Assembly: GCF_037038585.1 (NCBI RefSeq)
Contig: NC_092525.1
Coordinates: 25,564,867-25,628,866, forward strand
DNA length: 64,000 bases
DNA from: Patagioenas fasciata
Taxonomy: Eukaryota; Chordata; Aves; Columbiformes; Columbidae
Reading direction: 5' to 3'
A program made the translations under genes and the position numbers. Below the pieces are notes generated by a model that saw only the letters and a list, made by a program, of their open reading frames with translations, had not been told where the DNA came from and did not search any database. Below are positions 775-64,000 of the stretch, piece after piece (positions within the stretch are counted from its first letter, which is position 1; the number at the start of each line of letters is the position of its first letter).

Positions 775-1950
<1,176 letters not shown>

Positions 1951-29400: not shown

Positions 29401-32400
29401 GAATGGTTGGACTCCACCTCCAAAGTGCATCAGTGAGTAGCATAAATGTTTCAGAGCTCCCTATCGTTGCTGGCTCAGACGTGATGACCTGTGTTCTCAG
29501 ATTTTTGTCATCTAGATTGGTAGCTTTTTTATTAGGCAAAGAAAGACTAAAATAGAGGACTGATCCTCCAGAGATTAACCTTTCTGGGGCTCCAAAAAAT
29601 AAAGCGAGAAAACATAAAGGAAGTTAGTAAGGCAGGAAAATATCTACTGTCTCCTAGGTGAGTTTTGGTTTTGGACTTCTAGCACAAATTAGATGATAAT
29701 CACTGACCTCTCCGCTGATTCCTACCTGATACAAGGTATATATCAGCCCAATATACTCCTAATTCTTCCTCCTTTCACACTTGTGAGGGAAGATTTGCGA
29801 AGAAATGCCTGTGAACCAAGGGATTCTGCCAAGAACTTTCTTTAAACGTGAACAAATTAGAGAAAAAAGGGAATAATTTTTTGGAAAGATGTTATCACTA
29901 TGCATAAAAAGCACTATGCGTACGTCTGCCCTGGTGTTAAAAAGTACATTTGTTAAAAACACCAGAGTGCTTTTTCCTGCAAATGCCTCAATATTGTTGT
30001 TGTCTTTTTCTTCTTAAACGTTCCTTCCTCTCCTGAACAGGGATATAGGATAGTAAAAGAAGAGACTTAATCTTCCATTGTTATGATACCAGGGCTCATA
30101 ATATTGACCAACTTCAGCTGAGATATATATATACACACACATATAGATATATATATACACACACATATAGATATATATATACACACACATATAGATATAT
30201 ATATAACTTATCCTTTTGTTTCAGGATTTTGCACTTTTTTTGTCTGACCTCCTTACAAATGACCATGGGAAACAGGGGTACAAACTGTTTGCTGTGACAC
30301 TAATAATAATAATATGTAGTATAAGGAAAGGAATGAAATCTGAGGGAGAAACATTTATGCTAGATATTAGCTCTATAAACGTTTCTGAAGAATAATGCAA
30401 TAGATATAATATTCATATGCTACATATGATGGTCTTCATTCATATTCTGGCAATGCAGAATTTTTGATATTTCAAAAATACTGAGTAGATCAATAGACTA
30501 GCACATACTAAAGCACCTACAGAAATGATGGTTCCAGAGGAAAATGGTTCTGGATCACAAAATGCTCTAACTTTGTTTTATTCTACAGAATCATGTCAAA
30601 CACCTCATTTGGACATTTTGAATTACCATGCAAATAGAACTAATTTCATACCTGAAGACACAATTGAGTATGCATGTTTGGAGGGATATCAAACTGCAGA
30701 TAATATGCCAATTGGTACCTCGAGGTGTGACATAAATGGCGAGTGGAGTCCAACACCCCAGTGCTTTGGTGAATATTGTTGTGTTTACTAATCAGTGTTA
30801 ACTCTGTATACACTTTGTGAAGCTTTTTCTTTAAGGCTTTCTTTAGTTTTCTTCTGATCATTAGTATTTCATGTACTTTATAAGAGTGTACACTTGATGT
30901 TAAAATATTTTCTCTTTGTAGCAATAGAATGTAACATGCTGACATTGCCCAATGGAGATTTTTCTCCCAAGAAGGGTAAATACCGCAATGGAGATGTTGT
31001 GAAATTTACCTGTGCAAACAGTTATGTGAGAGTGGGACCTGCCTCTACTCAGTGCTATTACTTTGGATGGTTTCCATCCCCACCAGTATGTAAAGGTAAT
31101 TCTTTTTTTAGCTTTATTGTAGTAGAAACATATGAAAATGCCTCGGTCCTGAAGACTTCCGTGGGCACCTTCTATAAGCCAGTCCTGCTCCCAAGAAAAA
31201 TTATCCAGTCTTCATCTATAGAAGGGCAGAAACTGGCCCTCTTTGCATGATTTCATAGTGTTTTGCTATTTTATGTGAAAGGTTCTGAACAGTTGAACTT
31301 ACAGTGTTGAACCTCTTCTTAGCTTTAATTATGCCCATTGGAGTTCTGCAAATAACTGAAAGTGAGCTGCTAAATGGCTTGTGCAAAATTTCACTCAGGT
31401 TATTGACTATAACATATGGAAACTATTTATTATTCAAAAAGGCATAAATAATTTGCAAGATGACAGCCAGGAGAGATTAATGTAATTCCTCTCTTACTGT
31501 ATTGTAAATGTCCTAGGTTTGCTACTGCCTAATGTTGACACCCGGCAGATACTGTACTCTATGTTCCTTTTTATGATCACTTGATATTATGGGTGGGGAA
31601 TAAATAAAATTGGAGATGACACAGAGCTGGACTCAAGCAAAAGAAATTCAGTGATATTCCTCAGCTTCATCTGGTAGGATGAACAAACTCACGCAGAAGG
31701 GAAGCTACTTGCCTCTATTCTTCTCACCTTTTTAAGGACAGAGCACAATTTATTGGCATCTGAAAAGAGTTTATTTTACTGGTGCTATGCCCTTTCATGA
31801 CACAGCTCAAGAGGATGAAGGGATCTCGTATTCCTTACCTTACCTCCCCACAGTTTTCTTGTCGACTTCTGTGATCTTATCCTTCTTTTTGCTCATTCTC
31901 TTTTACATTTCAAACCAGGTATATTTCATATAGTTGGCTCTTTAGCTCAGGAACATTTTAAGCTCCCTTAACAGAAGTTTCATTCGCTACATCAGAAGTT
32001 AATTTCTTTAATATACAGTACATATCACGTGCTGGTTGATTTTTATAACACAAGTTATTATTGCAGAATTTTCACCTTAAAAAAAAAAAGAAAGAATATT
32101 GAACTTTTCATCTATGTAACTTTTTTTTTCTCTTAAAACTGGGTTGGTTTTATAGCACACTTCTTTTATCATAGCAGGAAATTGACAGTGCATGGAGGTA
32201 AGAGATTAGAGTGAACCAGCGCCATACATATCTGTTTGTGACTTCCAGGCCAACGTGAATCCAGATATTCAAAGGCAATAAACCAATGACCTGTATAACC
32301 TGTTCTACGGATATTTCTTACCTTTAAACAACAAATTTGATTTCTTTTGTGTTGCACTTAACAAATAACTGTGCTAAAAGGACTGAGTTCAGAGTATAAA

Positions 32401-35400
32401 CGTGATCTCTTGATTTCAGTGAATGCCAGAGGCTGTGGACCTCCACCTGAGATTGCCAATGGAAGTATCGCTGATGGCTCTGTGGAATGGTATCGGCATG
32501 GGGATAGAAAGCAATATGAATGCAATGTCGACTTCAAATTGGTTGGATCAAAGGAAATAGAATGTGTTGATGGACAATGGTCATCTCCTCCCTCTTGCAT
32601 TGGTAACCTATATAACTCTTGTTTTTGAGAAGTCTATAATTCTCTGTAGGCTAATACTTCACAGCTGTTTTCACAATTTCATATTTGCAGGTAGAACATG
32701 TTATGTTCAAAATCATTTTACAGATTAAAAGTAACCAGACGCTATTTGTAAAGCCCAAACTTTATTAGTAGTATAATTAAAATCTCAACAATCCAGCCAC
32801 AGTTTTTGTGGGTCCAAATCAAATTATTATAGAAAGAGAAAGAAAATTAATATGTAATATATAAATAATAATCATAAGTACATAAATGCACAGAATATCT
32901 AAATAATACAAATCATTTATAATATATAATTACAATTGTTATACACAGACTTTCTCTTACCACTTTTTCCGGTGTTATTCTCACCCTTCCACTGTCTCTT
33001 TGGATCCTAAAGTCAATGGCTTCAGTCTCTGGTGTTTTGGAGGGAAGCTGCTGCACCTTATCAATACCTCAAGTAATTGACTGGGAGGAATAAGATATTG
33101 ATGATGATGATTTCCTCTTCTCCTTACAGGATCTGCTTGGGGCAATTTTTAGGTTTGCCCTTTTTACACTTGTCTACAACTTCTGAATTAGATATATTAA
33201 GTGTGTTTTAAATATGTTAGATACTTGTTCTTTGTCTTTGTGTTACCCCTAAAACCAGTTGTCATCAGATCCAGGTCTAAGCTGGTCTTTTGACTCACCA
33301 AATGCACATATAGTTACTTTTATTTAAGTTCTTTCAGCTATTCATATGTGACTCCAGTATTATTGTGGAATACTTCTCTTTTTCAACAGAAGACAAAACG
33401 CCATGTGGATCACCTTCCTCTATTCCAAACGTTGTTCTTCAGCAGGAAGACCAGACCCAGTTTTCACATGGTGATGAAGTGATTTGTGGATGTAAACAGG
33501 GCTCTGGCCATTCTAACACTATGAGAATAAAATGTCGTAGTGGAGAATGGAAGCCTTTACCTCTTTGTGCTGGTAATCTATTTCCATAATACTTCAAATA
33601 AGAGTGTAACATAGTTCCGCTCAAAATTTCAAGGACTTCAACAATCAAACCAGGACAATATGTAGGCAGAGATACTAAGTTTCACGCATATTAACTAAGT
33701 TATTTTTACTTATTCCTCTTTTAAACGTGAACATGTCCTTCATCCTGGACAGACTCTACACCTACAACTTTGTAAATGTTCTGAGTAGGTTTGGGGAAAG
33801 AAAAGGACAGTTGCACAGTGGGTAGAATAAAGTATGGGGATACATCTTTGGTGTATAGTGGCTTTTATCCATTTTCCAGTGTTCCTTGTCCCTTCAGAAG
33901 CCTTGGGACATACCTGCAATAAAGTAGTGTGCCTGTTGCTTTAATTACTTCTGGGTTTATGTCTCTGTATGCTATTTGGCTTTTTAAAAATCCTGCTGGG
34001 AATAAGCCTAGCACACTGTGGCTAATAATAAAAGCAATATTAGTATTATTAGTATTATAGTATAGTATTAGTATTATCCCATCCTCACTATTTCGTGTGG
34101 ATTAGTCCTTTCCATTTCTCATCAGTAGTTTTCTCTTTTTTCTCATCTTCTCATTTAGTTTTGCAATCCATAAATTGAATTAATGTCTTTTAAAAAGATC
34201 TACAACAAAGCCTTTTCCGAAGAAAAAGGAAAAGATTACATTGAAGTCAATAATTGAAGAAAAAAGAGATAGTGGACAAGAAGGAGTGTTGTCTGGGAAA
34301 AATTATTCCAGAACTTCACTTAAGAGAACACAGGTTATGATATAGCTAATTCTTGGTTGCCTGTTTCTTCAGAAATGTTTTTGTACTCATCAGTGATTTG
34401 AGAGACTGTACCTTCACTTAGAATTATATTGAGGATTGAGTCTGGCACAAAACACAGTCTGCTCAGCTTTCAGAAGTAGCTTGTGTTCTGTCTCTCAGAG
34501 TCACCAGTCAGGGACACAAGATCTGGTTATGACTTGGACGTACTTCCACAGGAGAATGATACCTGGTACATGTTTGGTGTTCAGTAGTACTTCCCTTATG
34601 CTCCTGTTTCTACAAGCAAAAGAAAGTTTATTTTCTTGCTCATCTTACTACCTTTTATAGGTTTATGGAAGAAAGAAATGGTTCTTTTTTATAATATTTA
34701 CTGCATACAGCAAAAGGGATCCTGTCAAATTAAAAATAATTGCTTTGTGAGTGCAAACAATGTCTGTTTTAGATAGTGGGGGGAAAAAAATCATTCTGTG
34801 GTCTATGAATCTCATGAGTTACTTCAAACTACAGTAAACAAAAAAACCACTTGGACATACATTAGGAAATTGAAGACCTCTTCATCAGTGACTGTGCATT
34901 TACATGTTACCTGACCTAAATCCATTTTTTAGCTTTTTTTTTTTTTCTTTTTTTTCAGATCCGTCTCCTCGGTGTGAACTTCCAGCAAATGTTGACCTAA
35001 TACTCAATGGTCGTCTTGCCAAGCCGAAAAAGCAGGCTAAATTCCTTAGAGTTATACATTATGTATGTAAATCATCTGACAAAAGCATTAAACAGGCTAC
35101 TTGTGTGTCTGGAAAATGGTCACCAGAGATTGAATGTACAGGTATGGTTTTGGATTTGCATACAATTTCTTCTTTTTATGTAGGAAATATAAGTGCTCTG
35201 TTAAAGCTTCTTAGCGTTGTTGTGTCACTAATCTGAAATAGAAATGTTTACATGCTTATATATGCTTACTTGATTCTATGCTAAAATATAGTCATGAATA
35301 ATTATGGCAATAATTTGAAGTTATATAGGCTTAGAGACACACTATTTTAGTGAGGCAGATTTGTAATCTCTTCTCTGACAACTGGAACAGTTATCACTGT

Positions 35401-38400
35401 CATTTCTGATGTGAGAAAAGATGCAATGATAAATTTAAGCTCAGTTCTTCAAAAGGGCTTTATGCTGGTGCAAATGAGTGTAGCACGGAGCTCAAGCTCC
35501 AGCCGAAGTTCCTTTATTTCCTGTAAACATTCAAAACTTTTCTATTCCTGACTTTTCTTTTTTTTTTTTCTTTTTCTTCTTTTTTCTTCCAGTTACTTCC
35601 TAGTGAAACAACAGAGTTGGGCATCTCAAAAGCACAGACATAGATGAGACTGCCCTTATCTAATAGACACCAGAGGTCAGATGCCTGCAGGGACTGCCTT
35701 TCTGAATAGCAGAGCAGGATGTTGCCTGTAGAAGGCATTGACTGTAGAACAATCATTGCGTCATTGCCTGTTTTGAGTAGGCCAGGTTCATGGGAAACGG
35801 TGCATGGAAGTGGGAGAAGTGTACGGAGTGGCATCAGTCAAGGGAGCATTCCCTTTCAAAGCCTGGTGTCCCTACCTTCCCAGTTTTCTGGAACCACTAG
35901 AAGCAAGAAACCAAACTCATGAGGTCTCCTTCTTCCTAGATCTACCTCTTTCCCTCACTTTTTCTTTCATCTGGCAGGAGAAGCCCTTTGTTGCTTTAGA
36001 AGGAAAATTTAAGTTTGTTTCTTTGATAATGATAATAATTAAAGCTTTAGATGATAGCTACTGAAAATTATCACCAGTATTGTCTTGGTTGTTATTGTTG
36101 TAATCTGTGATGAACTGTTACATTTTATGTTATGTTCTACTATAACATGACTATGTGTCCTCAGCTGAGGAGAGCACATGCCCACCTCCACCTCAGGTGC
36201 CTGGTGCTCAACAGATAACAGCCAGAAGAAATTACAAGAACGGGACTAAAACAGCTTTTTCATGTCTGAAGAGTTTCCAGCTCATTGGTGCAAATGAAAT
36301 AACATGTATAGATGGCAAATGGCAGTCACCACCTCACTGTGTGGGTTAGTAGTGGATTTTTTATCCTATTTATTTTGTTATTCATTTCAGTGTTTGTTAT
36401 GCATTTGCAGTCATCATTAGCAGGAGGATGATATTATTTATGTTAAGATTATCATGAACAGGTAACTGCAGAAAATAAATAGAATGTAAGTTGCTAAAGA
36501 AAGTGCAGTTAACCAACTGATGGACAGTAAGTCTTCTTATTTACAAAGACTTATCTAAGATAGCATAGAAAACTTTCAAGAACTGTGTGTTTATTTGTTT
36601 AGTATGTTGCAGAATGGAGTGTCAGTTTTGACTGAGGACATTCAATAGCATCCTGTTGAAAAAAAAAAAAAAATCCCAAAACAAAACCATTAATTTATTG
36701 TGTAGTTGTGGTAGTAGCATTTTTTAAATTCCTTTTTTTTTTTTTTTTTTTTTTAATGGCTTCATCCTAGGCAGGAGTATAAATGATATGGCATAACTCA
36801 GGCCATCTACTCTGAGAAATGGTGAGGAACCTGTAGTCCAGTTGCTAAAACATTAGCAGTGCAACAGATATCTAGTTCATTGAGAGATAGAATAAAGTAT
36901 TTTCAGAAATAAATAGGAGATAAATGAGAACAGGAGAAATGAGGTGCCAGCTGGTGACTGATGTGCACAACATCCCAACCGTGTCTGTGCTTTTGAGCTG
37001 CAAAATTCTGATGCCACATCATTACCCTTCTTTTGCATTGCCTGTGAATCTTCATCAAGTGCCAGACATAGGGAAAAATAACAAAAACAACAACAACAAA
37101 ACTGCTCAAGCTGTTCATTAAACAGCTTTACTGAAATAAAACTCCCAGTCCCAGTTACTAAACAGGAACTTTGACTGTAACTAGATATTTTGCATTGTGG
37201 AATTTAGTGCAAACATATGCTTGAACTCGAAATTGTGTCAACTAATAAAACCTCATTTACTAATTAACTAAAAATGCATATAAGATGTAATTTAAGTCCA
37301 CCCACTCAACAGCACTGTAGGAGAAGGCGGCATTGGACAGCCCTAACTCAGGAGGCCTTCATAGAGATTTATTCCGTTGTCTGTATTGGGAAGTACATTT
37401 CAATGCTTTCTAAGTTCTGTTCTCTATTTTAACATCTCATCACAAACCCCCTCAGGACATGGGTACAGCTTCATTACTGGTGGGAAGATGTAATAGCTAA
37501 CATTCTAGAAACTCACTTTCAGTATCCCAAAGCAAGATAATATCCCTTCTGTTTCTCTGCCCATGAAGTTTCCCCCATTCTTCATACTAAGCTGTAACTG
37601 TATCTCCTTGATATGACCTGGAAACTGGCTTTAATCTGTTTCACAGGAAAATTAAACATCCCCATGTAGGAGAGAAAGGAGAGAGAAGTTTTGCTTTGTG
37701 TATCTTCATCTTCATTTCAAGCTATTTTATTTAGGCTTGGTTTATTTTTTTTTTCTTTTCAGTTTTAGACAACTTTTGTCATTGGAATATTAATTGGTTT
37801 ACATTATTGTTCATCTGTTCTTTCTGTATTTTATAGAAAGACCGTGTTTGCCACCAGAACCTGTAGACTGTGCTGATGTTCCCAGAATGGAAAATCAAAA
37901 CTTAAAAATTAAAAAACAAGGGAAAACAATTTATCTGGCTGGTGCTAGACTGAAGTATGTTTCTCGTTCTGGATATAAGTTAGATGGACCATTGGAGATT
38001 ACCTGTTCTATGGGAAACTGGACTACAGCTCCTACATGCTTGGGTAATATCAAACCATACTTTTTTTTTTCTTTAATACATTTAGCAATGAAGTTGAAAC
38101 AATTTTAAACTGGAAGTTGACTGATAAGAGCCAGGATCTCCATATTTTGCTGTGGAATCTAATCATCCTTTGTGGATGTCTTCAGAGCAATCCTGATTGG
38201 ATGCAAGGCGGACTTTTTGAATGCAGTTTAGTTTTTAAATATTCCTTTGTATTCTTGCAGTCTTTGCTCAGTTCATATCTCTGCCAACTAAGTCCTGGGC
38301 ACATCCTCATAATTCAAGGATCTGTTTCCTATGGAGTCCACTAGTGTCCAGGAGTTGCTTTGGCGCTTTAGTTGTGGAAACCACTTAAGTGTAGGAAGTG

Positions 38401-41400
38401 ACACAAGCCTTTATTAACATTTCCTGGCACAGTTAGAAACAGGATCTAGGTATGTGAGTGACTGAAGTCCACGTCTGTTTAGGGGAATTACTTATTTCAT
38501 CTTCTGTATGCTACCTTTTATATAAAATCCACTGTCAGTGGATGACTATGCTGATGTTGTAACAGAAAGAGCTCTCCAAGGCATCTCTTTGGTGGAAACA
38601 ATACATTCATTTTATGTGTATCGCATTAGCACAAGCATCAACTTTCTGTGTCTTTTCAGAACGGCCATGTGGAAGTATTCCAAAAGTTGCCAACGCTCAA
38701 ATTGAAGGGAGAAACAAGGAAAGTTATGAGCCTGGTGAAACAATTCGCTATGAGTGTGATGAAGGGTTCCTTATTGTTGGTACACCAGAAATTATTTGCA
38801 GAGAAGGAAATTGGACAGCACCACCGTTCTGTGAAGGTATAGGTTTTACTTCTAAGTAGTCTATAATCCTTTTTAATCTTTAATGTTGTGAATTAAAATA
38901 ACATCAACACAGGCATGCAGATGAGACAGACCAATAGAGCCAGCAGGTGATTTGTTTTGAACGGGCTCTTGCAAGGCCTATTTTTCTGGCTCCTGAGAAA
39001 TAACAAGCAGGGAAGACGAGGAAAGAAACCATTTCCCCCGTGGGCTGAAGTTGGTAGCTGGAACTTAGCTCACTGCTCAAATCAAGCAGAAACAGGTTTA
39101 TGGGGGAATGGATGCTGGCTGCAAAGAAGGAGATAACTGGTAGGGTAATGTATCTTATTTTCACATCACTAAGAATGTCAGTTCCTGAAAGTTACCTTCA
39201 CATAGTCAAAAAACCCTTTCACTCTCCAGCCCTTTGGCACACAAGGCTGTATAGCACCTATCTGTGCCTTCGGCTGATCTCTGCGACTCCTTTTCTCTTT
39301 TCAGTCACTATAGGCAAAAATAATAGTGACTGGTGAAGAGCTGCAGAATAAAGACCATAACGTTATCTTCCTTTTCCTCTCTAGAAAATTATCCACATTA
39401 GGCAAACAATTTCTGCTCCTCAGGCATAATGGTGCTCTGAAATGCAAAATTTTGTGATTGATAGATTGCTGCACTACTGTTCTTAAAAGCACCTCTCTTT
39501 TCAGATGTTACCTGTGGAGCTGCACCTGAAATTCCCAATGCTTATATTACAAGCACTCAACAGGAGGGGTATCTGCCTGGTGCCAGAGTGCAGTATGAAT
39601 GTGAAAGCAATTTTCAGATGATGGATATAAATTATGTCACTTGTACAAATGGACAATGGTCACAAGCACCAACCTGCAGAGGTAGGAATCTCTGCCTTCA
39701 TCTTGCCTTTTAGCATAGAGGGGACTGCTTACCTAAATACTCTAAAGACTTTACCTATTTTAACCCTCTTTTCTTCGTGTACCTGCAAACATGACCGCAC
39801 AGTGTCTCTTCTCAGATGTGACGTGTGAACCTCCTCCAGAAATTGCTGGTGGTAAAATTGAAGGTGTTAAAAAGTCAAGGTATTTGCCTGGAGAGAGTGC
39901 TCGCTATCAGTGCTGGCGAGGCTTTCAGATGACGGGATCTTCCAGTGTAACGTGTCAGACCGGGAACTGGACAGAGCTGCCAAAGTGCAAAGGTACCGTT
40001 TCTCTTTCTCTTCATACAGTTGCCTGTCAGTGAGACTGTCTTGAAGCTGAGTCAGTGGCATTTACTTCTCCAAATTTCATTCTCAATACTGTGCACAAAT
40101 GCAGGATATCTGGCACACTCAGGAAAAGGCATTTTCCCAGGTTTCTCTTCAGATGAATTTACGAGCTGCATGACCCAGGTGGCTCCACAGGAGAGGGCCC
40201 CATCTGGAAAACCACCCCCAGGCTGAGAACAGTTGCTGGCCAGGTGTAATTTTGAGACTTCTTAGAATCTGCTTTCTGTGCCTGCCTGATGAGAAGAGAG
40301 AGAGGAATGTTGCTGTCTGTATTGGACAATCAAGCCCACGGCTTCCCTGCTAGTTGACATCCGGTTGATGCAGATGCTGCATTGCTATATCGTATGTCGT
40401 GGAGTCAAATCAACTGTTAAATGAACTGGGGGTAGAATTTGAAGTGTGAGCCAATCCCTAAGTACTGTGTTGGTGCCTCCTAGGCTTTCATGAGCGTACT
40501 GAAAATGTCACCTCTTTTCAGGTATTTGCTTCTCTCTCTGCTTTCCTCTGGGTCTCTCAGAGGAGTGCCAGCATACTGCCTGGTAGTATTTGTGGTCAGG
40601 CCTCCATTGCAATTGAACTCGGCTGACTTGATCTCTGATTGTGAACTTTCTTCCAGGTGAAGGGGGGAAGTGTGGCCCACCTCCAGTTATTGAAAATGGA
40701 GACCTTCTTTCCTTCCCCATGCAAGAATATTCCCAAGGTACAACTCTGGAATACAAATGCCCAAGTCTCTATCTCCTGGAAGGATCTCAGTATATCACGT
40801 GCACTGATGGGCAGTGGACAAGTCCCCCGGTTTGCCTAGGTGGGTTGAAGCTGTGTGGCCAAAGGCGGTGTGACTGCTCCGCTTTTCTGCTTCTCAGATC
40901 CTGAGGCTATCGCTTGTGCAGCAGCACGGGTGCCGGGGTGTGATGGCGGCCAGAAGGAAGTTGGTCTTGAGGTTAGCTTGTGTAGTCCCTTTTGCCGCCT
41001 GCTGTCTCTCATTGGGTTCAGGAGGAGAGGAGCTGGTCGGAACCCGTTTTTGCGAGGGAATCACCACCACTGTGAGGGCTCTCGAGTGCTCCCGAGCTGG
41101 GGACACTGCTCCGGTCAGTGGCTGTGAGCACGGAGGGTGGGCGTGAGTGTGTGGTGGTGCTGGGAAATCCTGGGGTGCATCCGTGACATGACCAGGAGGA
41201 AACACATTTAGAGAAATGCTGGGCAGAGCAAAGGAATGGTCTAAAAGAAGACATGGGGTAGTTCATTGGTGCCTTGTGATTTCCCCCTCCCGTGCTTTGA
41301 ACTTGCCTTGAGTGACTGTCAGAGTGAAAAGGCTTCTCCGTAGCTCTGCCAGGGGTCTCAGCTGTGGTCTTTTCTCTCTTTAGCTTGGGTGCAAATGTCT

Positions 41401-46958: not shown

Positions 46959-46960
46959 TA

Positions 46961-51790: not shown

Positions 51791-51861
51791 TCTTGTCTCA
51801 GCAGGCCAGCCTATTTCAGGACACAATTGTTAAAAAAACACCAGTGAGATAAATACAGAAT

Positions 51862-51950
51862 GGATAAAATGTAAGCACAACCATTTGAATGGATAAAATG
51901 TAAATACATTATAAACATGGATAAAATGCAGATGAAATGTAAACACAATC
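51862..51950 (-). repeat. Expanded 28-29-bp tandem repeat in 3'UTR of inverted copy
   Basis: GGATAAAATG begins units at 51862, 51891 and 51919, with a degenerate fourth (AGATGAAATGTAAACACAATC-like, written here only in part: GATGAAATGTAAACAC) at about 51931. The left arm has two units. Marks the inner boundary of near-identity. Confidence 0.8.
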
Positions 51951-52059
51951 ACTGAATCATGAAAAGAAAAAAATAACTAATTCCAAGACAGAGCATGGGC
52001 TAAGCTACAAACAAAGCACAGCAAAACAGGAAATGTCAGCAAAAACTGAGCTCAGATCA

Positions 52060-52298
52060 CTACGTCGTTTGAGGGATCATCCATTTCCTCAGCTGGACTC
52101 CTTCATTCCATTTCCATTTATCCAAACGTATCTGCAACATAAAGAGAAAAAAGGGGGAAAGGTGTGAAGACCAAGTGTGGCACACCACAGTGGTTCCTCG
52201 GAGCAGAGGACAAGCAGTTTCAGCAAAGCTTGACAAGTTTGGTGACCGTAGCTGAATATGGTTCCCTTCCATAGTATTCTTATTCAATATACAGTTCC
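52060..52298 (-). pseudogene. Inverted copy, broken exon 23 (SCR21 remnant)
   Basis: The acceptor is intact and the exon starts at 52298 with [17 protein letters not shown]. The frame runs only to the deletion junction at 52228-52230, where a 171-bp loss has removed the last three SCR cysteines, the exon end and its GT donor. Without splicing the frame reads on through former intron and exon 24 sequence in another frame to a stop at 52060, ending WMIPQTT. The junction retains one copy of AGC that is present at both ends of the missing segment in the left arm (42034-42036, 42205-42207). Confidence 0.9.
52118..52131 (-). CDS. Inverted copy, exon 24 equivalent
   Basis: Acceptor and the TAA stop are conserved. 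Because the exon 23 donor is lost, it could be joined directly to exon 22 in phase 1. That would give Asn-Thr-Phe-Gly and stop after the SCR20 CKPG end. Confidence 0.6.
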
Positions 52299-55200
52299 CT
52301 GGAAAAAGAACTTCCATTATTTGCCTGTTCACCTCCCACAGGACAGCTGATGCCCTGAAGCTGCTGGCACAGGCTGAAACCTCCTGAGCGCCCTTTTCCC
52401 AGCAGTGTTTCCAGTTCAGGCTCCTACACCCTGCTCCTCCCCAGAAAAGCTAAAGACTTTCCCCTGGGCTTCACCAACAACGCAGCAGCTGAGCTGTGGC
52501 TGGAGTGCAGATGACTTACTTCCTGGCTTGCACCGTGGATATTCTAACAACCCCTCCACACACTGCACTCTGAAGGGAGAAGATGCTGGGTCCTTCACAT
52601 ATCCTCTTCTACACTTAAATTCAATAAAGTCCCCCGATGTTGAATACAGCTTTTTTCCTCTGACCCATTTCAGCTCAATATTGTTGTTGCTCATGTCATC
52701 TTCAGATACTGTACAGGCCACTTGGAAAAGGCAAGAGAAGAGTGTCATCACTTCATACACATGCATCATGGGTAACTTTTTTCCCCTACAGCCTACACAA
52801 GTTCTTTGTGTCACAAAATGCTTCCAGCTATTTGCTCTCTGCATCTATTAGCCACAACAGGAAAGACATTTGCACCCAAGCTAAAGAGAGAAAAGACCAC
52901 AGCTGAGACCCCTGGCAGAGCTACGGAGAAGCCTTTTCACTCTGACAGTCACTCAAGGCAAGTTCAAAGCACGGGAGGGGGAAATCACAAGGCACCAATG
53001 AACTACCCCATGTCTTCTTTTAGACCATTCCTTTGCTCTGCCCAGCATTTCTCTAAATGTGTTTCCTCCTGGTCATGTCACGGATGCACCCCAGGATTTC
53101 CCAGCACCACCACACACTCACGCCCACCCTCCGTGCTCACAGCCACTGACCGGAGCAGTGTCCCCAGCTCGGGAGCACTCGAGAGCCCTCACAGTGGTGG
53201 TGATTCCCTCGCAAAAACGGGTTCCGACCAGCTCCTCTCCTCCTGAACCCAATGAGAGACAGCAGGCGGCAAAAGGGACTACACAAGCTAACCTCAAGAC
53301 CAACTTCCTTCTGGCCGCCATCACACCCCGGCACCCGTGCTGCTGCACAAGCGATAGCCTCAGGATCTGAGAAGCAGAAAAGCGGAGCAGTCACACCGCC
53401 TTTGGCCACACAGCTTCAACCCACCTAGGCAAACCGGGGGACTTGTCCACTGCCCATCAGTGCACGTGATATACTGAGATCCTTCCAGGAGATAGAGACT
53501 TGGGCATTTGTATTCCAGAGTTGTACCTTGGGAATATTCTTGCATGGGGAAGGAAAGAAGGTCTCCATTTTCAATAACTGGAGGTGGGCCACACTTCCCC
53601 CCTTCACCTGGAAGAAAGTTCACAATCAGAGATCAAGTCAGCCGAGTTCAATTGCAATGGAGGCCTGACCACAAATACTACCAGGCAGTATGCTGGCACT
53701 CCTCTGAGAGACCCAGAGGAAAGCAGAGAGAGAAGCAAATACCTGAAAAGAGGTGACATTTTCAGTATGCTCATGAAAGCCTAGGAGGCACCAACACAGT
53801 ACTTAGGGATTGGCTCACACTTCAAATTCTACCCCCAGTTCATTTAACAGTTGATTTGACTCCACGACATACGATATAGCAATGCAGCATCTGCATCAAC
53901 CGGATGTCAACTAGCAGGGAAGCCGTGGGCTTGATTGTCCAATACAGACAGCAACATTCCTCTCTCTCTTCTCATCAGGCAGGCACAGAAAGCAGATTCT
54001 AAGAAGTCTCAAAATTACACCTGGCCAGCAACTGTTCTCAGCCTGGGGGTGGTTTTCCAGATGGGGCCCTCTCCTGTGGAGCCACCTGGGTCATGCAGCT
54101 GGTAAATTCATCTGAAGAGAAACCTGGGAAAATGCCTTTTCCTGAGTGTGCCAGATATCCTGCATTTGTGCACAGTATTGAGAATGAAATTTGGAGAAGT
54201 AAATGCCACTGACTCAGCTTCAAGACAGTCTCACTGACAGGCAACTGTATGAAGAGAAAGAGAAACGGTACCTTTGCACTTTGGCAGCTCTGTCCAGTTC
54301 CCGGTCTGACACGTTACACTGGAAGATCCCGTCATCTGAAAGCCTCGCCAGCACTGATAGCGAGCACTCTCTCCAGGCAAATACCTTGACTTTTTAACAC
54401 CTTCAATTTTACCACCAGCAATTTCTGGAGGAGGTTCACACGTCACATCTGAGAAGAGACACTGTGCGGTCATGTTTGCAGGTACACGAAGAAAAGAGGG
54501 TTAAAATAGGTAAAGTCTTTAGAGTATTTAGGTAAGCAGTCCCCTCTATGCTAAAAGGCAAGATGAAGGCAGAGATTCCTACCTCTGCAGGTTGGTGCTT
54601 GTGACCATTGTCCATTTGTACAAGTGACATAATTTATATCCATCATCTGAAAATTGCTTTCACATTCATACTGCACTCTGGCACCAGGCAGATACCCCTC
54701 CCGTTGAGTGCTTGCAATATAAGCATTGGGAATTTCAGGTGCAGCTCCACAGGTAACATCTGAAAAGAGAGGTGCTTTTAAGAACAGTAGTGCAGCAATC
54801 TATCAATCACAAAATTTTGCATTTCAGAGCACCATTATGCCTGAGGAGCAGAAATTGTTTGCCTAATGTGGATAATTTTCTAGAGAGGAAAAGGAAGATA
54901 ACGTTATGGTCTTTATTCTGCAGCTCTTCACCAGTCACTATTATTTTTGCCTATAGTGACTGAAAAGAGAAAAGGAGTCGCAGAGATCAGCCGAAGGCAC
55001 AGATAGGTGCTATACAGCCTTGTGTGCCAAAGGGCTGGAGAGTGAAAGGGTTTTTTGACTATGTGAAGGTAACTTTCAGGAACTGACATTCTTAGTGATG
55101 TGAAAATAAGATACATTACCCTACCAGTTATCTCCTTCTTTGCAGCCAGCATCCATTCCCCCATAAACCTGTTTCTGCTTGATTTGAGCAGTGAGCTAAG

Positions 55201-58200
55201 TTCCAGCTACCAACTTCAGCCCACGGGGGAAATGGTTTCTTTCCTCGTCTTCCCTGCTTGTTATTTCTCAGGAGCCAGAAAAATAGGCCTTGCAAGAGCC
55301 CGTTCAAAACAAATCACCTGCTGGCTCTATTGGTCTGTCTCATCTGCATGCCTGTGTTGATGTTATTTTAATTCACAACATTAAAGATTAAAAAGGATTA
55401 TAGACTACTTAGAAGTAAAACCTATACCTTCACAGAACGGTGGTGCTGTCCAATTTCCTTCTCTGCAAATAATTTCTGGTGTACCAACAATAAGGAACCC
55501 TTCATCACACTCATAGCGAATTGTTTCACCAGGCTCATAACTTTCCTTGTTTCTCCCTTCAATTTGAGCGTTGGCAACTTTTGGAATACTTCCACATGGC
55601 CGTTCTGAAAAGACACAGAAAGTTGATGCTTGTGCTAATGCGATACACATAAAATGAATGTATTGTTTCCACCAAAGAGATGCCTTGGAGAGCTCTTTCT
55701 GTTACAACATCAGCATAGTCATCCACTGACAGTGGATTTTATATAAAAGGTAGCATACAGAAGATGAAATAAGTAATTCCCCTAAACAGACGTGGACTTC
55801 AGTCACTCACATACCTAGATCCTGTTTCTAACTGTGCCAGGAAATGTTAATAAAGGCTTGTGTCACTTCCTACACTTAAGTGGTTTCCACAACTAAAGCG
55901 CCAAAGCAACTCCTAGACACTAGTGGACTCCATAGGAAACAGATCCTTGAATTATGAGGATGTGCCCAGGACTTAGTTGGCAGAGATATGAACTGAGCAA
56001 AGACTGCAAGAATACAAAGGAATATTTAAAAACTAAACTGCATTCAAAAAGTCCGCCTTGCATCCAATCAGGATTGCTCTGAAGACATCCACAAAGGATG
56101 ATTAGATTCCACAGCAAAATATGGAGATCCTGGCTCTTATCAGTCAACTTCCAGTTTAAAATTGTTTCAACTTCATTGCTAAATGTATTAAAAAAAAAAA
56201 AAAAGTATCGTTTGATATTACCCAAGCATGTAGGAGCTGTAGTCCAGTTTCCCATTGAACAGGTAATCTCCAATGGTCCATCTAACTTATATCCAGAACG
56301 AGAAACATACTTCAGTCTAGCACCAGCCAGATAAATTGTTTTCCCTTGTTTTTTAATTTTTAAGTGTTGATTTTCCATTCTGGGAACATCAGCACAGTCT
56401 ACAGGTTCTGGTGGCAAACATGGTCTTTCTATAAAATACAGAAAGAACAGATGAACAATAATATAAACCAATTAATATTCCAATGACAAAAGTTGTCTAA
56501 AACCGAAAAGAAAAAAAAAAATAAACCAAGCCTAAATAAAATAGCTTGAAATGAAGATGAAGATACACAAAGCAAAACTTCTCTCTCCTTTCTCTCCTAC
56601 ATGGGGATGTTTAATTTTCCTGTGAAACAGATTAAAGCCAGTTTCCAGGTCATATCAAGGAGATACAGTTACAGCTTAGTATGAAGAATGGGGGAAACTT
56701 CATGGGCAGAGAAACAGAAGGGATATTATCTTGCTTTGGGATACTGAAAGTGAGTTTCTAGAATGTTAGCTATTACATTTTCCCACCAGTAATGAAGCTG
56801 TACCCATGTCCTGAGGGGGTTTGTGATGAGATGTTAAATTGAGAACAGAACTTAGAAAGCATTGAAATGTACTTCCCAATACAGACAACGGAATAAATCT
56901 CTATGAAGCCCTCCTGAGTTAGGGCTGTCCAATGCCGCCTTCTCCTACAGTGCTGTTGAGTGGGTGGACTTACATTACATCTTATATGCATTTTTAGTTA
57001 ATTAGTAAATGAGGTTTTATTAGTTGACACAATTTCGAGTTCAAGCATATGTTTGCACTAAATTCTACAATGCAAAATATCTAGTTACAGTCAAAGTTCC
57101 TGTTTAGTAACTGGGACTGGGAGTTTTATTTCAGTAAAGCTGTTTAATGAACAGCTTGAGCAGTTTTGTTGTTGTTGTTGTTTTTGTTATTTTTCCCTAT
57201 GTCTGGCACTTGATGAAGATTCACAGGCAATGCAAAAGAAGGGTAATGATGTGGCATCAGAATTTTGCAGCTCAAAAGCACAGACACGGTTGGGATGTTG
57301 TGCACATCAGTCACCAGCTGGCACCTCATTTCTCCTGTTCTCATTTATCTCCTATTTATTTCTGAAAATACTTTATTCTATCTCTCAATGAACTAGATAT
57401 CTGTTGCACTGCTAATGTTTTAGCAACTGGACTACAGGTTCCTCACCATTTCTCAGAGTAGATGGCCTGAGTTATGCCATATCATTTATACTCCTGCCTA
57501 GGATGAAGCCATTAAAAAAAAAAAAAAAAAAAAAAGGAATTTAAAAAATGCTACTACCACAACTACACAATAAATTAATGGTTTTGTTTTGGGATTTTTT
57601 TTTTTTTTTCAACAGGATGCTATTGAATGTCCTCAGTCAAAACTGAGACTCCATTCTGCAACATACTAAACAAATAAACACACAGTTCTTGAAAGTTTTC
57701 TATGCTGTCTTAGATAAGTCTTTGTAAATAAGAAGACTTACTGTCCATCAGTTGGTTAACTGCACTTTCTTTAGCAACTTACATTCTATTTATTTTCTGC
57801 AGTTACCTGTTCATGATAATCTTAACATAAATAATATCATCCTCCTGCTAATGATGACTGCAAATGCATAACAAACACTGAAATGAATAACAAAATAAAT
57901 AGGATAAAAAATCCACTACTAACCCACACAGTGAGGTGGTGACTGCCATTTGCCATCTATACATGTTATTTCATTTGCACCAATGAGCTGGAAACTCTTC
58001 AGACATGAAAAAGCTGTTTTAGTCCCGTTCTTGTAATTTCTTCTGGCTGTTATCTGTTGAGCACCAGGCACCTGAGGTGGAGGTGGGCATGTGCTCTCCT
58101 CAGCTGAGGACACATAGTCATGTTATAGTAGAACATAACATAAAATGTAACAGTTCATCACAGATTACAACAATAACAACCAAGACAATACTGGTGATAA

Positions 58201-61200
58201 TTTTCAGTAGCTATCATCTAAAGCTTTAATTATTATCATTATCAAAGAAACAAACTTAAATTTTCCTTCTAAAGCAACAAAGGGCTTCTCCTGCCAGATG
58301 AAAGAAAAAGTGAGGGAAAGAGGTAGATCTAGGAAGAAGGAGACCTCATGAGTTTGGTTTCTTGCTTCTAGTGGTTCCAGAAAACTGGGAAGGTAGGGAC
58401 ACCAGGCTTTGAAAGGGAATGCTCCCTTGACTGATGCCACTCCGTACACTTCTCCCACTTCCATGCACCGTTTCCCATGAACCTGGCCTACTCAAAACAG
58501 GCAATGACGCAATGATTGTTCTACAGTCAATGCCTTCTACAGGCAACATCCTGCTCTGCTATTCAGAAAGGCAGTCCCTGCAGGTATCTGACCTCTGGTG
58601 TCTATTAGATAAGGGCAGTCTCATCTATGTCTGTGCTTTTGAGATGCCCAACTCTGTTGTTTCACTAGGAAGTAACTGGAAGAAAAAAGAAGAAAAAGAA
58701 AAAAAAAAAAGAAAAATCAGGAATAGAAAAGTTTTGAATGTTTACAGGAAATAAAGGAACTTCGGCTGGAGCTTGAGCTCCGTGCTACACTCATTTGCAC
58801 CAGCATAAAGCCCTTTTGAAGAACTGAGCTTAAATTTATCATTGCATCTTTTCTCACATCAGAAATGACAGTGATAACTGTTCCAGTTGTCAGAGAAGAG
58901 ATTATAAATCTGCCTCACTAAAATAGTGTGTCTCTAAGCCTATATAACTTCAAATTATTGCCATAATTATTCATGACTATATTTTAGCATAGAATCAAGT
59001 AAGCATATATATAAGCATGTAAACCTTTCTATTTCAGATTAGTGACACAACAACGCTAAGAAGCTTTAACAGAGCATTTATATTTCCTACATAAAAAGAA
59101 GAAATTGTATGCAAATCCAAAACCATACCTGTACATTCAATCTCTGGTGACCATTTTCCAGAGACACAAGTAGCCTGTTTAATGCTTTTGTCAGATGATT
59201 TACATACATAATGTATAACTCTAAGGAATTTAGCCTGCTTTTTCAGCTTGGCAAGACGACCATAGAGTATTAGGTCAACATTTGCTGGAAGTTCACACCG
59301 AGGAGACGGATCTGAAAAAAAAGAAAAAAAAAAAAAAAAAGCTAAAAAATGGATTTAGGTCAGGTAACATGTACATGCAGAGTCACTGATGAAGAGGTCT
59401 TCAATTTCCTAATGTATGTCCAAGTGGTTTTTTCGTTTACTGTAGTTTGAAGTAACTCATGAGATTCATAGACCACAGAATGATTTTTTTCCCCCCACTA
59501 TCTAAAACAGACATTGTTTGCACTCACAAAGCAATTATTTTTAATTTGACAGGATCCCTTTTGCTGTATGCAGTAAATATTATAAAAAAGAACCATTTCT
59601 TTCTTCCATAAACCTATAAAAGGTAGTAAGATGAGCAAGAAAATAAACTTTCTTTTGCTTGTAGAAACAGGAGCATAAAGGAAGTACTACTGAACACCAA
59701 ACATGTACCAGGTATCATTCTCCTGTGGAAGTACATCCAAGTCATAACCAGGTCTTGTGTCCCTGACTGGTGACTCTGAGAGACAGAACACAAGCTACTT
59801 CTGAAAGCTGAGCAGACTGTGTTTTGTGCCAGACTCAATCCTCAATATAATTCTAAGTGAAGGTACAGTCTCTCAAATCACTGATGAGTACAAAAACATT
59901 TCTGAAGAAACAGGCAACCAAGAATTAGCTATATCATAACCTGTGTTCTCTTAAGTGAAGTTCTGGAATAATTTTTCCCAGACAACACTCTTTCTTGTCC
60001 ACTATCTCTTTTTTCTTCAATTATTGACTTCAATGTAATTTTTTCCTTTTTCTTCGGAAAAGGCTTTGTTGTAGATCTTTTTAAAAGACATTAATTCAAT
60101 TTATGGATTGCAAAACTAAATGAGAAGATGAGAAAAAAGAGAAAACTACTGATGAGAAATGGAAAGGACTAATCCACATGAAATAGTGAGGATGGGATAA
60201 TACTAATACTATACTATAATACTAATAATACTAATATTGCTTTTATTATTAGCCACAGTGTGCTAGGCTTATTCCCAGCAGGATTTTTAAAAAGCCAAAT
60301 AGCATACAGAGACATAAACCCAGAAGTAATTAAAGCAACAGGCACACTACTTTATTGCAGGTATGTCCCAAGGCTTCTGAAGGGACAAGGGACACTGGAA
60401 AATGGATAAAAGCCACTATACACCAAAGATGTATCCCCATACTTTATTCTACCCACTGTGCAACTGTCCTTTTCTTTCCCCAAACCTACTCAGAACATTT
60501 ACAAAGCTGTAGGTGTAGAGTCTGTCCAGGATGAAGGACATGTTCACGTTTAAAAGAGGAATAAGTAAAAATAACTTAGTTAATATGCGTGAAACTTAGT
60601 ATCTCTGCCTACATATTGTCCTGGTTTGATTGTTGAAGTCCTTGAAATTTTGAGCGGAACTATGTTACACTCTTATTTGAAGTATTATGGAAATAGATTA
60701 CCAGCACAAAGAGGTAAAGGCTTCCATTCTCCACTACGACATTTTATTCTCATAGTGTTAGAATGGCCAGAGCCCTGTTTACATCCACAAATTACTTCAT
60801 CACCATGTGAAAACTGGGTCTGGTCTTCCTGCTGAAGAACAACGTTTGGAATAGAGGAAGGTGATCCACATGGCGTTTTGTCTTCTGTTGAAAAAGAGAA
60901 GTATTCCACAATAATACTGGAGTCATATATGAATAGCTGAAAGAACTTAAATAAAAGTAACTATATGTGCATTTGGTGAGTCAAAAGACCAGCTTAGACC
61001 TGGATCTGATGACAACTGGTTTTAGGGGTAACACAAAGACAAAGAACAAGTATCTAACATATTTAACACACACTTAATATATCTAATTCAGAAGTTGTAG
61101 ACAAGTGTAAAAAGGGCAAACCTAAAAATTGCCCCAAGCAGATCCTGTAAGGAGAAGAGGAAATCATCATCATCAATATCTTATTCCTCCCAGTCAATTA

Positions 61201-63686
61201 TTTGAGGTATTGATAAGGTGCAGCAGCTTCCCTCCAAAACACCAGAGACTGAAGCCATTGACTTTAGGATCCAAAGAGACAGTGGAAGGGTGAGAATAAC
61301 ACCGGAAAAAGTGGTAAGAGAAAGTCTGTGTATAACAATTGTAATTATATATTATAAATGATTTGTATTATTTAGATATTCTGTGCATTTATGTACTTAT
61401 GATTATTATTTATATATTACATATTAATTTTCTTTCTCTTTCTATAATAATTTGATTTGGACCCACAAAAACTGTGGCTGGATTGTTGAGATTTTAATTA
61501 TACTACTAATAAAGTTTGGGCTTTACAAATAGCGTCTGGTTACTTTTAATCTGTAAAATGATTTTGAACATAACATGTTCTACCTGCAAATATGAAATTG
61601 TGAAAACAGCTGTGAAGTATTAGCCTACAGAGAATTATAGACTTCTCAAAAACAAGAGTTATATAGGTTACCAATGCAAGAGGGAGGAGATGACCATTGT
61701 CCATCAACACATTCTATTTCCTTTGATCCAACCAATTTGAAGTCGACATTGCATTCATATTGCTTTCTATCCCCATGCCGATACCATTCCACAGAGCCAT
61801 CAGCGATACTTCCATTGGTAATCTCAGGTGGAGGTCCACAGCCTCTGGCATTCACTGAAATCAAGAGATCACGTTTATACTCTGAACTCAGTCCTTTTAG
61901 CACAGTTATTTGTTAAGTGCAACACAAAAGAAATCAAATTTGTTGTTTAAAGGTAAGAAATATCCGTAGAACAGGTTATACAGGTCATTGGTTTATTGCC
62001 TTTGAATATCTGGATTCTCGTTGGCCTGGAAGTCACAAACAGATATGTATGGCACTGGTTCACTCTAATCTCTTACCTCCATGCACTGTCAATTTCCTGC
62101 TATGATAAAAGAAGTGTGTTATAAAACCAACCCAGTTTTAAGAGAAAAAAAATGTTACATAGATGAAAAGTTCAATATTCTTTCTTTTTTTTTTTTAAGG
62201 TGAAAATTCTGCAATAATAACTTGTGTTATAAAAATCAACCAGCACGTGATATGTACTGTATATTAAAGAAATTAACTTCTGATGTAGTGAATGAAACTT
62301 CTGTTAAGGGAGCTTAAAATGTTCCTGAGCTAAAGAGCCAACTATATGAAATATACCTGGTTTGAAATGTAAAAGAGAATGAGCAAAAAGAAGGATAAGA
62401 TCACAGAAGTCAACAAGAAAACTGTGGGGAGGTAAGGTAAGGAATACGAGATCCCTTCATCCTCTTGAGCTGTGTCATGAAAGGGCATAGCACCAGTAAA
62501 ATAAACTCTTTTCAGATGCCAATAAATTGTGCTCTGTCCTTAAAAAGGTGAGAAGAATAGAGGCAAGTAGCTTCCCTTCTGCGTGAGTTTGTTCATCCTA
62601 CCAGATGAAGCTGAGGAATATCACTGAATTTCTTTTGCTTGAGTCCAGCTCTGTGTCATCTCCAATTTTATTTATTCCCCACCCATAATATCAAGTGATC
62701 ATAAAAAGGAACATAGAGTACAGTATCTGCCGGGTGTCAACATTAGGCAGTAGCAAACCTAGGACATTTACAATACAGTAAGAGAGGAATTACATTAATC
62801 TCTCCTGGCTGTCATCTTGCAAATTATTTATGCCTTTTTGAATAATAAATAGTTTCCATATGTTATAGTCAATAACCTGAGTGAAATTTTGCACAAGCCA
62901 TTTAGCAGCTCACTTTCAGTTATTTGCAGAACTCCAATGGGCATAATTAAAGCTAAGAAGAGGTTCAACACTGTAAGTTCAACTGTTCAGAACCTTTCAC
63001 ATAAAATAGCAAAACACTATGAAATCATGCAAAGAGGGCCAGTTTCTGCCCTTCTATGGATGAAGACTGGATAATTTTTCTTGGGAGCAGGACTGGCTTA
63101 TAGAAGGTGCCCACGGAAGTCTTCAGGACCGAGGCATTTTCATATGTTTCTACTACAATAAAGCTAAAAAAAGAGTTACCTTTACATACTGGTGGGGATG
63201 GAAACCATCCAAAGTAATAGCACTGAGTAGAGGCAGGTCCCACTCTCACATAACTGTTTGCACAGGTAAATTTCACAACATCTCCATTGCGGTATTTACC
63301 CTTCTTGGGAGAAAAATCTCCATTGGGCAATGTCAGCATGTTACATTCTATTGCTACAAAGAGAAAATATTTTAACATCAAGTGTACACTCTTATAAAGT
63401 ACATGAAATACTAATGATCAGAAGAAAACTAAAGAAAGCCTTAAAGAAAAAGCTTCACAAAGTGTATACAGAGTTAACACTGATTAGTAAACACAACAAT
63501 ATTCACCAAAGCACTGGGGTGTTGGACTCCACTCGCCATTTATGTCACACCTCGAGGTACCAATTGGCATATTATCTGCAGTTTGATATCCCTCCAAACA
63601 TGCATACTCAATTGTGTCTTCAGGTATGAAATTAGTTCTATTTGCATGGTAATTCAAAATGTCCAAATGAGGTGTTTGACATGATT
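52118..63686 (-). CDS. CFH-like gene in inverted orientation, 3' half (exons 11-24 equivalents)
   Basis: A second factor H coding unit on the minus strand, tail to tail with CFH. Fourteen exons corresponding to CFH exons 11-24 are visible; any 5' half is beyond 64000. All exons but one keep open frames, phase-1 boundaries and GT/AG sites. By eye about ten amino-acid differences and at least three silent ones separate the copies over SCR9-SCR20 and the SCR21 remnant. Exon 23 is broken by a 171-bp deletion, so the encoded protein probably ends after SCR20. It could be a full duplicate, a factor-H-related gene with few SCRs, or a partial copy; the window cannot decide. Confidence 0.85.
52520..52720 (-). 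CDS. Inverted copy, exon 22 equivalent: SCR20
   Basis: 201 bp, open, with conserved splice sites. Differs from CFH SCR20 by Ala to Val after CT, a silent GAA/GAG, and Met to Leu (EGLLEYPRC). The basic surface-recognition residues are unchanged. The preceding intron retains the GC-rich signal-like frame (53118-53321). Confidence 0.92.
53425..53607 (-). CDS. Inverted copy, exon 21 equivalent: SCR19
   Basis: 183 bp, protein sequence identical to CFH SCR19 ([18 protein letters not shown]). Acceptor and donor conserved. Confidence 0.94.
   Translation of the reverse strand: MKGGSVAHLQLLKMETFFPSPCKNIPKVQLWNTNAQVSISWKDLSISRALMGSGQVPRFA
54272..54448 (-). CDS. Inverted copy, exon 20 equivalent: SCR18
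   Basis: 177 bp, protein identical to CFH SCR18 ([24 protein letters not shown]). Splice sites conserved. Confidence 0.94.
54583..54759 (-). CDS. Inverted copy, exon 19 equivalent: SCR17
   Basis: 177 bp, open and spliceable. Reads PNAYIASTQREGYLPG where CFH has [16 protein letters not shown], two replacements four codons apart. All four cysteines kept. Confidence 0.92.
55428..55604 (-). CDS. Inverted copy, exon 18 equivalent: SCR16
   Basis: 177 bp, protein identical to CFH SCR16 ([16 protein letters not shown]). Splice sites conserved. Confidence 0.93.
56222..56428 (-). CDS. Inverted copy, exon 17 equivalent: SCR15
   Basis: 207 bp. Shares the missing second framework cysteine and the extra PVDC cysteine with CFH SCR15. 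Differs by Asn to His (MENQHLKIK) and one silent change in the RPC proline codon. Confidence 0.9.
57924..58103 (-). CDS. Inverted copy, exon 16 equivalent: SCR14
   Basis: 180 bp, protein identical to CFH SCR14 ([14 protein letters not shown]). Splice sites conserved. Confidence 0.94.
59129..59311 (-). CDS. Inverted copy, exon 15 equivalent: SCR13
   Basis: 183 bp, open. Reads LILYGRLAKLKKQAK where CFH has [15 protein letters not shown] (Asn to Tyr, Pro to Leu), plus one silent Val codon change. Four cysteines kept. Confidence 0.92.
60702..60884 (-). CDS. Inverted copy, exon 14 equivalent: SCR12
   Basis: 183 bp, protein identical to CFH SCR12, including the unusual [10 protein letters not shown] segment. 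Splice sites conserved. Confidence 0.93.
61672..61854 (-). CDS. Inverted copy, exon 13 equivalent: SCR11
   Basis: 183 bp, open. Reads PPPEITNGSIADG where CFH has [13 protein letters not shown] (GCC to ACC). The glycosylation sequon NGS is kept. Confidence 0.94.
63180..63353 (-). CDS. Inverted copy, exon 12 equivalent: SCR10
   Basis: 174 bp, protein identical to CFH SCR10 ([19 protein letters not shown]). The 153-bp intron to exon 11 is also conserved. Confidence 0.94.
63507..63686 (-). CDS. Inverted copy, exon 11 equivalent: SCR9
   Basis: 180 bp, protein identical to CFH SCR9 ([17 protein letters not shown]). This is the outermost exon of the copy inside the window; the acceptor is intact, so the transcript should continue to an exon 10 equivalent beyond 64000. 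Confidence 0.93.
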
Positions 63687-64000
63687 CTGTAGAATAAAAC
63701 AAAGTTAGAGCATTTTGTGATCCAGAACCATTTTCCTCTGGAACCATCATTTCTGTAGGTGCTTTAGTATGTGCTAGTCTATTGATCTACTCAGTATTTT
63801 TGAAATATCAAAAATTCTGCATTGCCAGAATATGAATGAAGACCATCATATGTAGCATATGAATATTATATCTATTGCATTATTCTTCAGAAACGTTTAT
63901 AGAGCTAATATCTAGCATAAATGTTTCTCCCTCAGATTTCATTCCTTTCCTTATACTACATATTATTATTATTAGTGTCACAGCAAACAGTTTGTACCCC
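63687..64000 (-). other. Inverted copy, intron 10 equivalent (cut by window edge)
   Basis: Matches CFH intron 10 in reverse complement down to about 30275 of the left arm. The 24-bp minisatellite would lie just outside the window. Confidence 0.9.

What the first reader, a model, noticed from the sequence alone, without database searches (positions are those of the whole stretch)
30275..64000. Giant inverted repeat placing two CFH 3' halves tail to tail
Seen directly: exons 11-24 of CFH, with all introns between them, recur on the opposite strand. Paired coordinates sum to between 94275 and 94264 over 11.4 kb, meaning only 11 bp of net length change, plus one 171-bp deletion. The arms exceed 12 kb around an 8.5 kb spacer and the right arm is not finished at the window edge. 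Mammalian CFHR genes arose by same-strand duplication; an inverted, convergent CFH pair would be a different route to a factor-H family. Such palindromes are also prone to inversion, deletion and conversion.
Basis: seen in the sequence. Interest (0 to 1): 0.9.

Follow-up and report, generated by a model that had tools for sequence, protein, structure and literature searches.

The report
Inverted factor-H-related gene facing CFH
Next to the complement-control gene CFH, this animal (probably a bird) carries a mirror-image gene that shares most of CFH's body almost letter for letter but has its own start and lacks the controlling end, so it may be a factor-H competitor that arose by a different route from those of mammals.

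Summary
The inverted repeat is real, longer than the window shows, and more than two CFH halves. Past the window the right arm ends at 68956: about 17 kb at 99.4% identity, inverted, around an 8.5-kb spacer. The left copy is a complete CFH model: 24 exons, 1316 aa, 21 SCR domains. The right copy appears to have its own start: a candidate signal-peptide exon (71580-71520), a private SCR exon (70419-70240), then SCR6-SCR20, all open with intact splice sites. It lies between CFH and F13B, where human CFHR genes lie, but inverted. Three levels of divergence (hardly recognisable 5' end; 85.6% inner 3' flank, found at only these two places in the 1.45-Gb genome; 99.4% core) fit an older convergent CFHR-like gene whose body was recently overwritten from CFH by gene conversion. 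It lacks SCR1-5 and keeps SCR6-7 and SCR19-20, the layout of a factor-H competitor. Not tested: expression, protein function, read support, other species. Misassembly is unlikely (no gaps, two copies, asymmetric flanks in expected gene order). New variant of a known kind.

The parts
1099..1635 (-). Open frame whose end (MVDLDSEV...) is a KCNT-type first coding exon, KCNT2 by synteny (name recalled); left neighbour of CFH, head to head
   Evidence: frame; 32 aa match KCNT1 residues 54-85, E 2.7e-10
11426..42314 (+). CFH, 24 coding exons, 1316 aa, 21 SCR domains
   Evidence: model; residues 22-1244 align with human factor H 3-1211
21267..21510 (+). Outermost piece of the left arm, matching 68956-68713 past the window
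25565..42544 (+). Left arm core, 99.4% identical to the right arm
41966..42163 (+). Exon for the additional SCR21 of CFH; its 3' part and donor are gone in the right copy
42545..42967 (+). Inner flank, left: 85.6% identical (ungapped) to 51855-51487; two places in the genome
42968..51486 (.). Spacer, 8519 bp, not repeated in the window; holds a mariner remnant
51487..51855 (-). Inner flank, right
51855..64000 (-). Right arm core, the part inside the window (exons SCR20 to SCR9 of the right gene); it continues on the same contig to 68956 (SCR8 to SCR6), followed past the window by the private SCR exon 70419-70240, the candidate signal-peptide exon 71580-71520, and F13B exons at about 77.1-86.1 kb, all on the minus strand
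   Evidence: arm; private SCR; signal-peptide candidate; F13B

Best explanation
The locus holds CFH (plus strand) and, facing it, a factor-H-related gene (minus strand) between CFH and F13B. The right gene was already there in inverted orientation, with its own signal peptide, first SCR and a CFH-like promoter. Its body from SCR6 to the 3' end, about 17 kb with introns, was then replaced by CFH sequence through gene conversion or break-induced copying between the inverted copies, probably in more than one event. The predicted protein lacks the N-terminal regulatory domains (SCR1-5) but keeps the ligand-binding domains (SCR6-7, SCR19-20) almost identical to CFH. It most likely works as human FHRs are reported to, by competing with factor H for C3b and host surfaces. 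Shown: anatomy, open exons, two copies of the core, stepped divergence. Inferred: conversion as the process, CFH as donor, the signal-peptide exon, expression, and competitor function.
For: Core: 96 substitutions in 16752 columns, introns included. The inner flank next to it is colinear at 85.6%, JC 0.16, and a query with it finds only these two places in 1.45 Gb, so it is a paralogous flank rather than a common repeat. The core query also finds two places only. The right gene has a private phase 1-1 SCR exon in frame with SCR6 (Sushi E 1.9e-12) and a candidate signal-peptide exon with donor GTAAGT in the same phase; that 5' stretch is single-copy. Control: such a strong leader-plus-donor occurs at 2 ATGs in 264 kb on both strands, this one included. 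A 28-of-32 match lies 169 and 139 bp before the two ATGs (score 44; best of 100 shuffles 30); no other place in 264 kb has fewer than 10 mismatches. Differences are patchy (p 0.0012). SCR6-SCR20 exons are open in both copies with all splice sites. Human FHRs lack CCP1-4 homologues and compete with FH, and CFH/CFHR1 gene conversion occurs (PMC10894998, passages). At the positions aligned with human S1191 and V1197 both copies have Ser and Ile; human FHR-1 has Leu and Ala (PMC7959842, abstract and passages).
Against: No outgroup or population data, so conversion and its direction are not polarised. The outer edge (21267/68956) is sharp, with no older shoulder as at the inner edge; on that side only the 32-bp promoter stretch shows older homology. 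About 17 kb is long for one conversion event. Constraint on the right copy is not shown: 10 nonsynonymous to 7 synonymous differences, p 0.052; no coding indel among 12, p 0.115. At the looser first criterion a signal-peptide-like exon is expected about once per 10 kb of strand, and one search listed a second, weaker candidate (69196). SCR21 is broken in the right copy, so its 3' end is uncertain: 1005 aa if skipped, 1080 aa if retained. No transcripts, no reads.
Confidence: 0.68

Rival explanations
1. One recent inverted duplication: the CFH stretch from the SCR3-SCR4 intron to the 3' end was copied once in inverted orientation and landed downstream of pre-existing leader and SCR exons, with no earlier inverted relative and no conversion.
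For: Sharp outer edge and high identity up to it; only two copies of the core.
Against: The inner flank continues colinearly at 85.6%, far older than the core, and is at these two places only. Divergence along the core is uneven.
Confidence: 0.18
2. Assembly artefact: two CFH alleles falsely joined in opposite orientation.
For: Core divergence of 0.57% is within what two alleles can show (recalled); no reads could be checked.
Against: No N in the 264 kb read; core at two places only, both on a 56-Mb contig; outer flanks differ and follow the expected gene order; the inner flank at 85.6% is not allelic-like and has just two copies; the right copy joins in frame to a private SCR exon.
Confidence: 0.06
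3. The structure is real but the right copy is not a working gene: a passenger or a gene in decay.
For: SCR21 is cut and its donor lost; SCR4-5 lost; dN/dS near 0.39 rests on 17 codon differences; the core is young enough to be open by chance.
Against: 15 CFH-type SCR exons plus the private exon are open with intact splice sites; a promoter stretch shared with CFH at a similar place.
Confidence: 0.25

Closest known systems
Human CFHR genes (CFHR1-5)
   Same: Between CFH and F13B; signal peptide plus SCRs; no counterpart of regulatory SCR1-4; terminal SCRs nearly those of CFH; gene conversion with CFH is known (PMC10894998, passages).
   Different: Here the gene is on the opposite strand to CFH (the same-strand order in human is recalled), has 15 CFH-type SCRs in a row (SCR6-20) with introns at 99.4%, and its first SCR has no close counterpart in CFH (best 40% to SCR11).
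Primate sex-chromosome palindromes
   Same: Inverted arms more than 99% alike, attributed to arm-to-arm gene conversion (PMC8981503, abstract and passages).
   Different: Chromosome type not known here; arms of only about 17 kb; G+C of noncoding arm 0.389 against 0.349 in single-copy CFH introns but 0.383 in the spacer, the rise being mainly in 40001-42544, so no clear conversion signature.
Chicken CFH locus
   Same: A CFH gene.
   Different: PMC7768046 (passages) retrieved a single Cfh family member in chicken and three in the anole lizard.

Membership tests
CFH (complement factor H) | Signal peptide and SCR array colinear with human factor H | tested here: met
   Left gene residues 22-1244 align with human factor H 3-1211; a 21st SCR is additional
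CFHR (factor-H-related genes) | Located between CFH and F13B | tested here: met
CFHR (factor-H-related genes) | Own signal peptide and SCR start | tested here: inconclusive
   Private SCR exon is clear; the signal-peptide exon is a candidate by sequence only
CFHR (factor-H-related genes) | No homologues of factor H SCR1-4 | tested here: met
   No DNA homology to the CFH 5' exons beyond 68956 and no other SCR exon in 68957-77800 (this scan would miss split exons)
CFHR (factor-H-related genes) | C-terminal SCRs like factor H SCR19-20 | tested here: met
   Against the left copy SCR19 has no difference and SCR20 two amino-acid changes
CFHR (factor-H-related genes) | Same orientation as CFH (as recalled for mammals; not part of the protein family's definition) | tested here: not met
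   Minus strand, convergent
CFHR (factor-H-related genes) | Secreted protein that binds C3b/C3d and competes with factor H | not testable with these tools
   Needs expression and binding assays
Palindrome kept alike by gene conversion | Inverted arms much more alike than their paralogous flank | tested here: met
   0.0057 substitutions per aligned site in the core against JC 0.16 in the inner flank; met at the inner edge, no such shoulder at the outer edge
Palindrome kept alike by gene conversion | Concerted evolution across species | not tested
   No relatives are held for this genome

The most novel reading that the evidence does not exclude
A non-mammalian lineage, probably of birds, evolved its own factor-H competitor: an inverted gene facing CFH whose ligand-binding body is repeatedly refreshed from CFH by palindrome-type gene conversion while its 5' end stays private, so that the competitor tracks factor H's binding surfaces, including a factor-H-like Ser at the human S1191 position.
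Probability: 0.4. Interest if true: 0.75.

Novelty: new variant of a known kind. Interest (0 to 1): 0.6.

Why it matters
Human CFHR proteins matter in kidney and eye disease because they compete with factor H, and CFH and CFHR1 exchange sequence (PMC10894998, passages). The one bird that I found described, chicken, was reported with a single CFH family member (PMC7768046, passages). A second, inverted factor-H-related gene at the same locus would show that such a competitor can arise by another structural route, and would give a natural system for asking how conversion between inverted copies keeps regulator and competitor alike. Short-read assemblies might merge two such genes (inference).

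Tried and rejected
Common interspersed repeat as the source of the 85.6% inner flank: rejected, 2 of 2 candidates scored, both at this locus (that search skips simple repeats and very common words). Right arm as an altered F13B: rejected, F13B is present separately to the right. Provirus in the spacer, suspected from relatives on contig C47: the stretch tested is a mariner remnant (SETMAR, E 1.6e-21); the rest of the spacer is not identified. A clean G+C-biased conversion signal: not shown (the first comparison used 11487-30274, which contains part of the arm, so one search replaces it). RNA families at gathering score: none in the window. tRNA genes: none. A CFH piece against phage records: no match, not informative. 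Pfam on 7 window ORFs: nothing at its cut-off. Pfam does not call SCR20 or SCR21; SCR21 is accepted on its similarity to SCR20. A protein search of the whole genome for more diverged CFHR genes did not complete, so further diverged relatives in this genome are not excluded. Ten literature searches: among the rows listed I saw no title or abstract on an inverted CFH pair or a bird CFHR; listings were capped and subscription papers are mostly not held. The second try was turned back because parts past the window's end were given coordinates above 64000; they are now described in the text of the last part.
Full report
WHAT WAS CHECKED. The window has no N. It lies at 25564867-25628866 of contig C6 (56.1 Mb) in a genome of 1.45 Gb in 359 contigs. 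I fetched 50 kb to the left and 150 kb to the right (no N). Coordinates above 64000 continue the window's numbering.

EXTENT. The right arm runs to 68714 (left 25565), then 244 bp more to 68956, matching left 21510-21267 at 98%. Left 21511-25564, with the SCR4 and SCR5 exons, is missing on the right, and alignable homology then stops. The high-identity right arm is 17102 bp, 17470 with the inner flank. From left 25565 to 42490 the core has 96 substitutions in 16752 aligned columns (0.57%), 12 small indels and the 171-bp gap. A core query finds two places in the genome, both here.

LEFT GENE. A 24-exon model, 11426-42314, gives 1316 aa with GT/AG introns and no internal stop (the ends of the SCR20 and SCR21 exons were wrong by one base and corrected). 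Residues 22-1244 align with human factor H 3-1211. An additional 21st SCR (exon 41966-42163) is 37% identical to SCR20 over 65 columns. To the left, a minus-strand frame matches the start of KCNT1; I take it as KCNT2 from recalled sequence and from the gene list around CFH in PMC7768046 (Figure 7 legend).

RIGHT GENE. On the minus strand the right copy holds SCR6 to SCR20, every exon open and every splice site intact. Beyond the arm lies a further SCR exon, 70419-70240, phase 1-1, a Sushi domain at E 1.9e-12 when read with the leader; among the left gene's domains it is closest to SCR11, 40% over 58 columns. A leader-like exon, 71580-71520, ends in GTAAGT in the matching phase. One search listed one other, weaker candidate at 69196. 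As a control, the loose criterion is met 50 times in 264 kb on both strands, about once per 10 kb of strand, but the strong one (hydrophobicity at least 2.7 and donor GTAAGT) at 2 ATGs only, this one included. Leader, private SCR and SCR6-20 together give 1001 codons without a stop. SCR21 is cut by the 171-bp gap, which also removes its donor. Skipping that exon would give 1005 aa, retaining it 1080 aa. The stretch 70200-71700 is single-copy in the genome.

NEIGHBOURS. To the right, on the same strand, lie F13B exons (three joined exons best match factor XIII B chain, E 7.2e-100). Then come a 1558-codon IQ-repeat frame, which I take as ASPM, and frames with BTB and zinc-finger sequence, which I take as ZBTB41; on the plus strand an EGF-repeat frame, taken as CRB1. 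These last names are recalled; they agree with the gene list in PMC7768046.

AGE LAYERS. Three levels of divergence separate the two genes. (1) At the 5' end only a 32-bp stretch is clearly recognisable: 28 of 32 identical, 169 and 139 bp before the two ATGs, score 44 against a best of 30 in 100 shuffles, and no other place in 264 kb with fewer than 10 mismatches. (2) The inner 3' flank, 42545-42967, is 309 of 361 identical without gaps (85.6%), JC 0.16, and a query with it finds two places only. (3) The core is at 0.57%. Core differences are unevenly spread (squared gaps p 0.0012; longest identical run 1332 bp, p 0.034, whose shuffles did not exclude the 171 gapped positions; on the window part alone p 0.0057 and 0.091). 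With a recalled neutral rate near 2e-9 per site and year these would be very roughly 40 million years for the flank and 1.4 million for the core; the rate comes from no call. A single duplication does not give such layers; repeated copying between inverted paralogues does. The sharp outer edge, without an older shoulder, is the main point that does not fit neatly.

COULD IT BE AN ARTEFACT? A false join of two alleles would have to pass through an 85.6% flank on one side and end in frame with a private SCR exon on the other, and carry a 4-kb and a 171-bp deletion. The two outer flanks differ and are in the expected gene order. I consider it unlikely, but no reads were available.

FUNCTION (INFERRED). 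Human FHRs lack counterparts of CCP1-4, keep homologues of ligand-binding domains (for FH, CCP6-7 and 19-20), and can compete with FH (PMC10894998, passages). The right gene has that layout. Against the left copy it has 10 nonsynonymous and 7 synonymous differences in SCR6-SCR20. The shortage of nonsynonymous changes is borderline (p 0.052) and the absence of coding indels is not significant (p 0.115), so selection on the right copy is not shown. At the positions aligned with human S1191 and V1197 both copies have Ser and Ile. I placed these from the equal-length match of query 3-126 to chain 1088-1211 plus the 18-residue human signal peptide (recalled); the letters are, and one search lists no difference there. 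In FHR-1 these are Leu and Ala, and the Ser-to-Leu change almost abolishes sialic-acid recognition (PMC7959842, abstract). If expressed, the right protein would therefore be predicted to be an effective competitor. That is a prediction, not a result.

SPECIES. 

VERDICT. A real convergent pair of CFH and a CFHR-like gene with a recently homogenised core: a new variant of the CFHR kind, with an inverted origin. Among the rows listed by the ten literature searches named under Tried and rejected I saw no description of it.

Noticed in passing
41966-42163: CFH here has a 21st, SCR20-like terminal domain followed by a tiny last coding exon (protein ends YTFG); human factor H ends at SCR20.
   Followed up: partly
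37837-38043: SCR15 lacks the usual second cysteine (YVS instead of YxC) and has an extra cysteine near its start, in both copies.
   Followed up: no
45981-46292 and 46000-47000: Mariner (SETMAR-like) remnant in the spacer. Of the 40 matches scored (684 candidates) 38 lie on contig C47, 32 of them with the same score, spaced by hundreds of kb, as if a large unit had been amplified there.
   Followed up: partly
42490-42545: The fall in arm identity begins at a short A/T-rich tandem motif, 39 bp longer in the right copy, a possible place where copying stopped.
   Followed up: no
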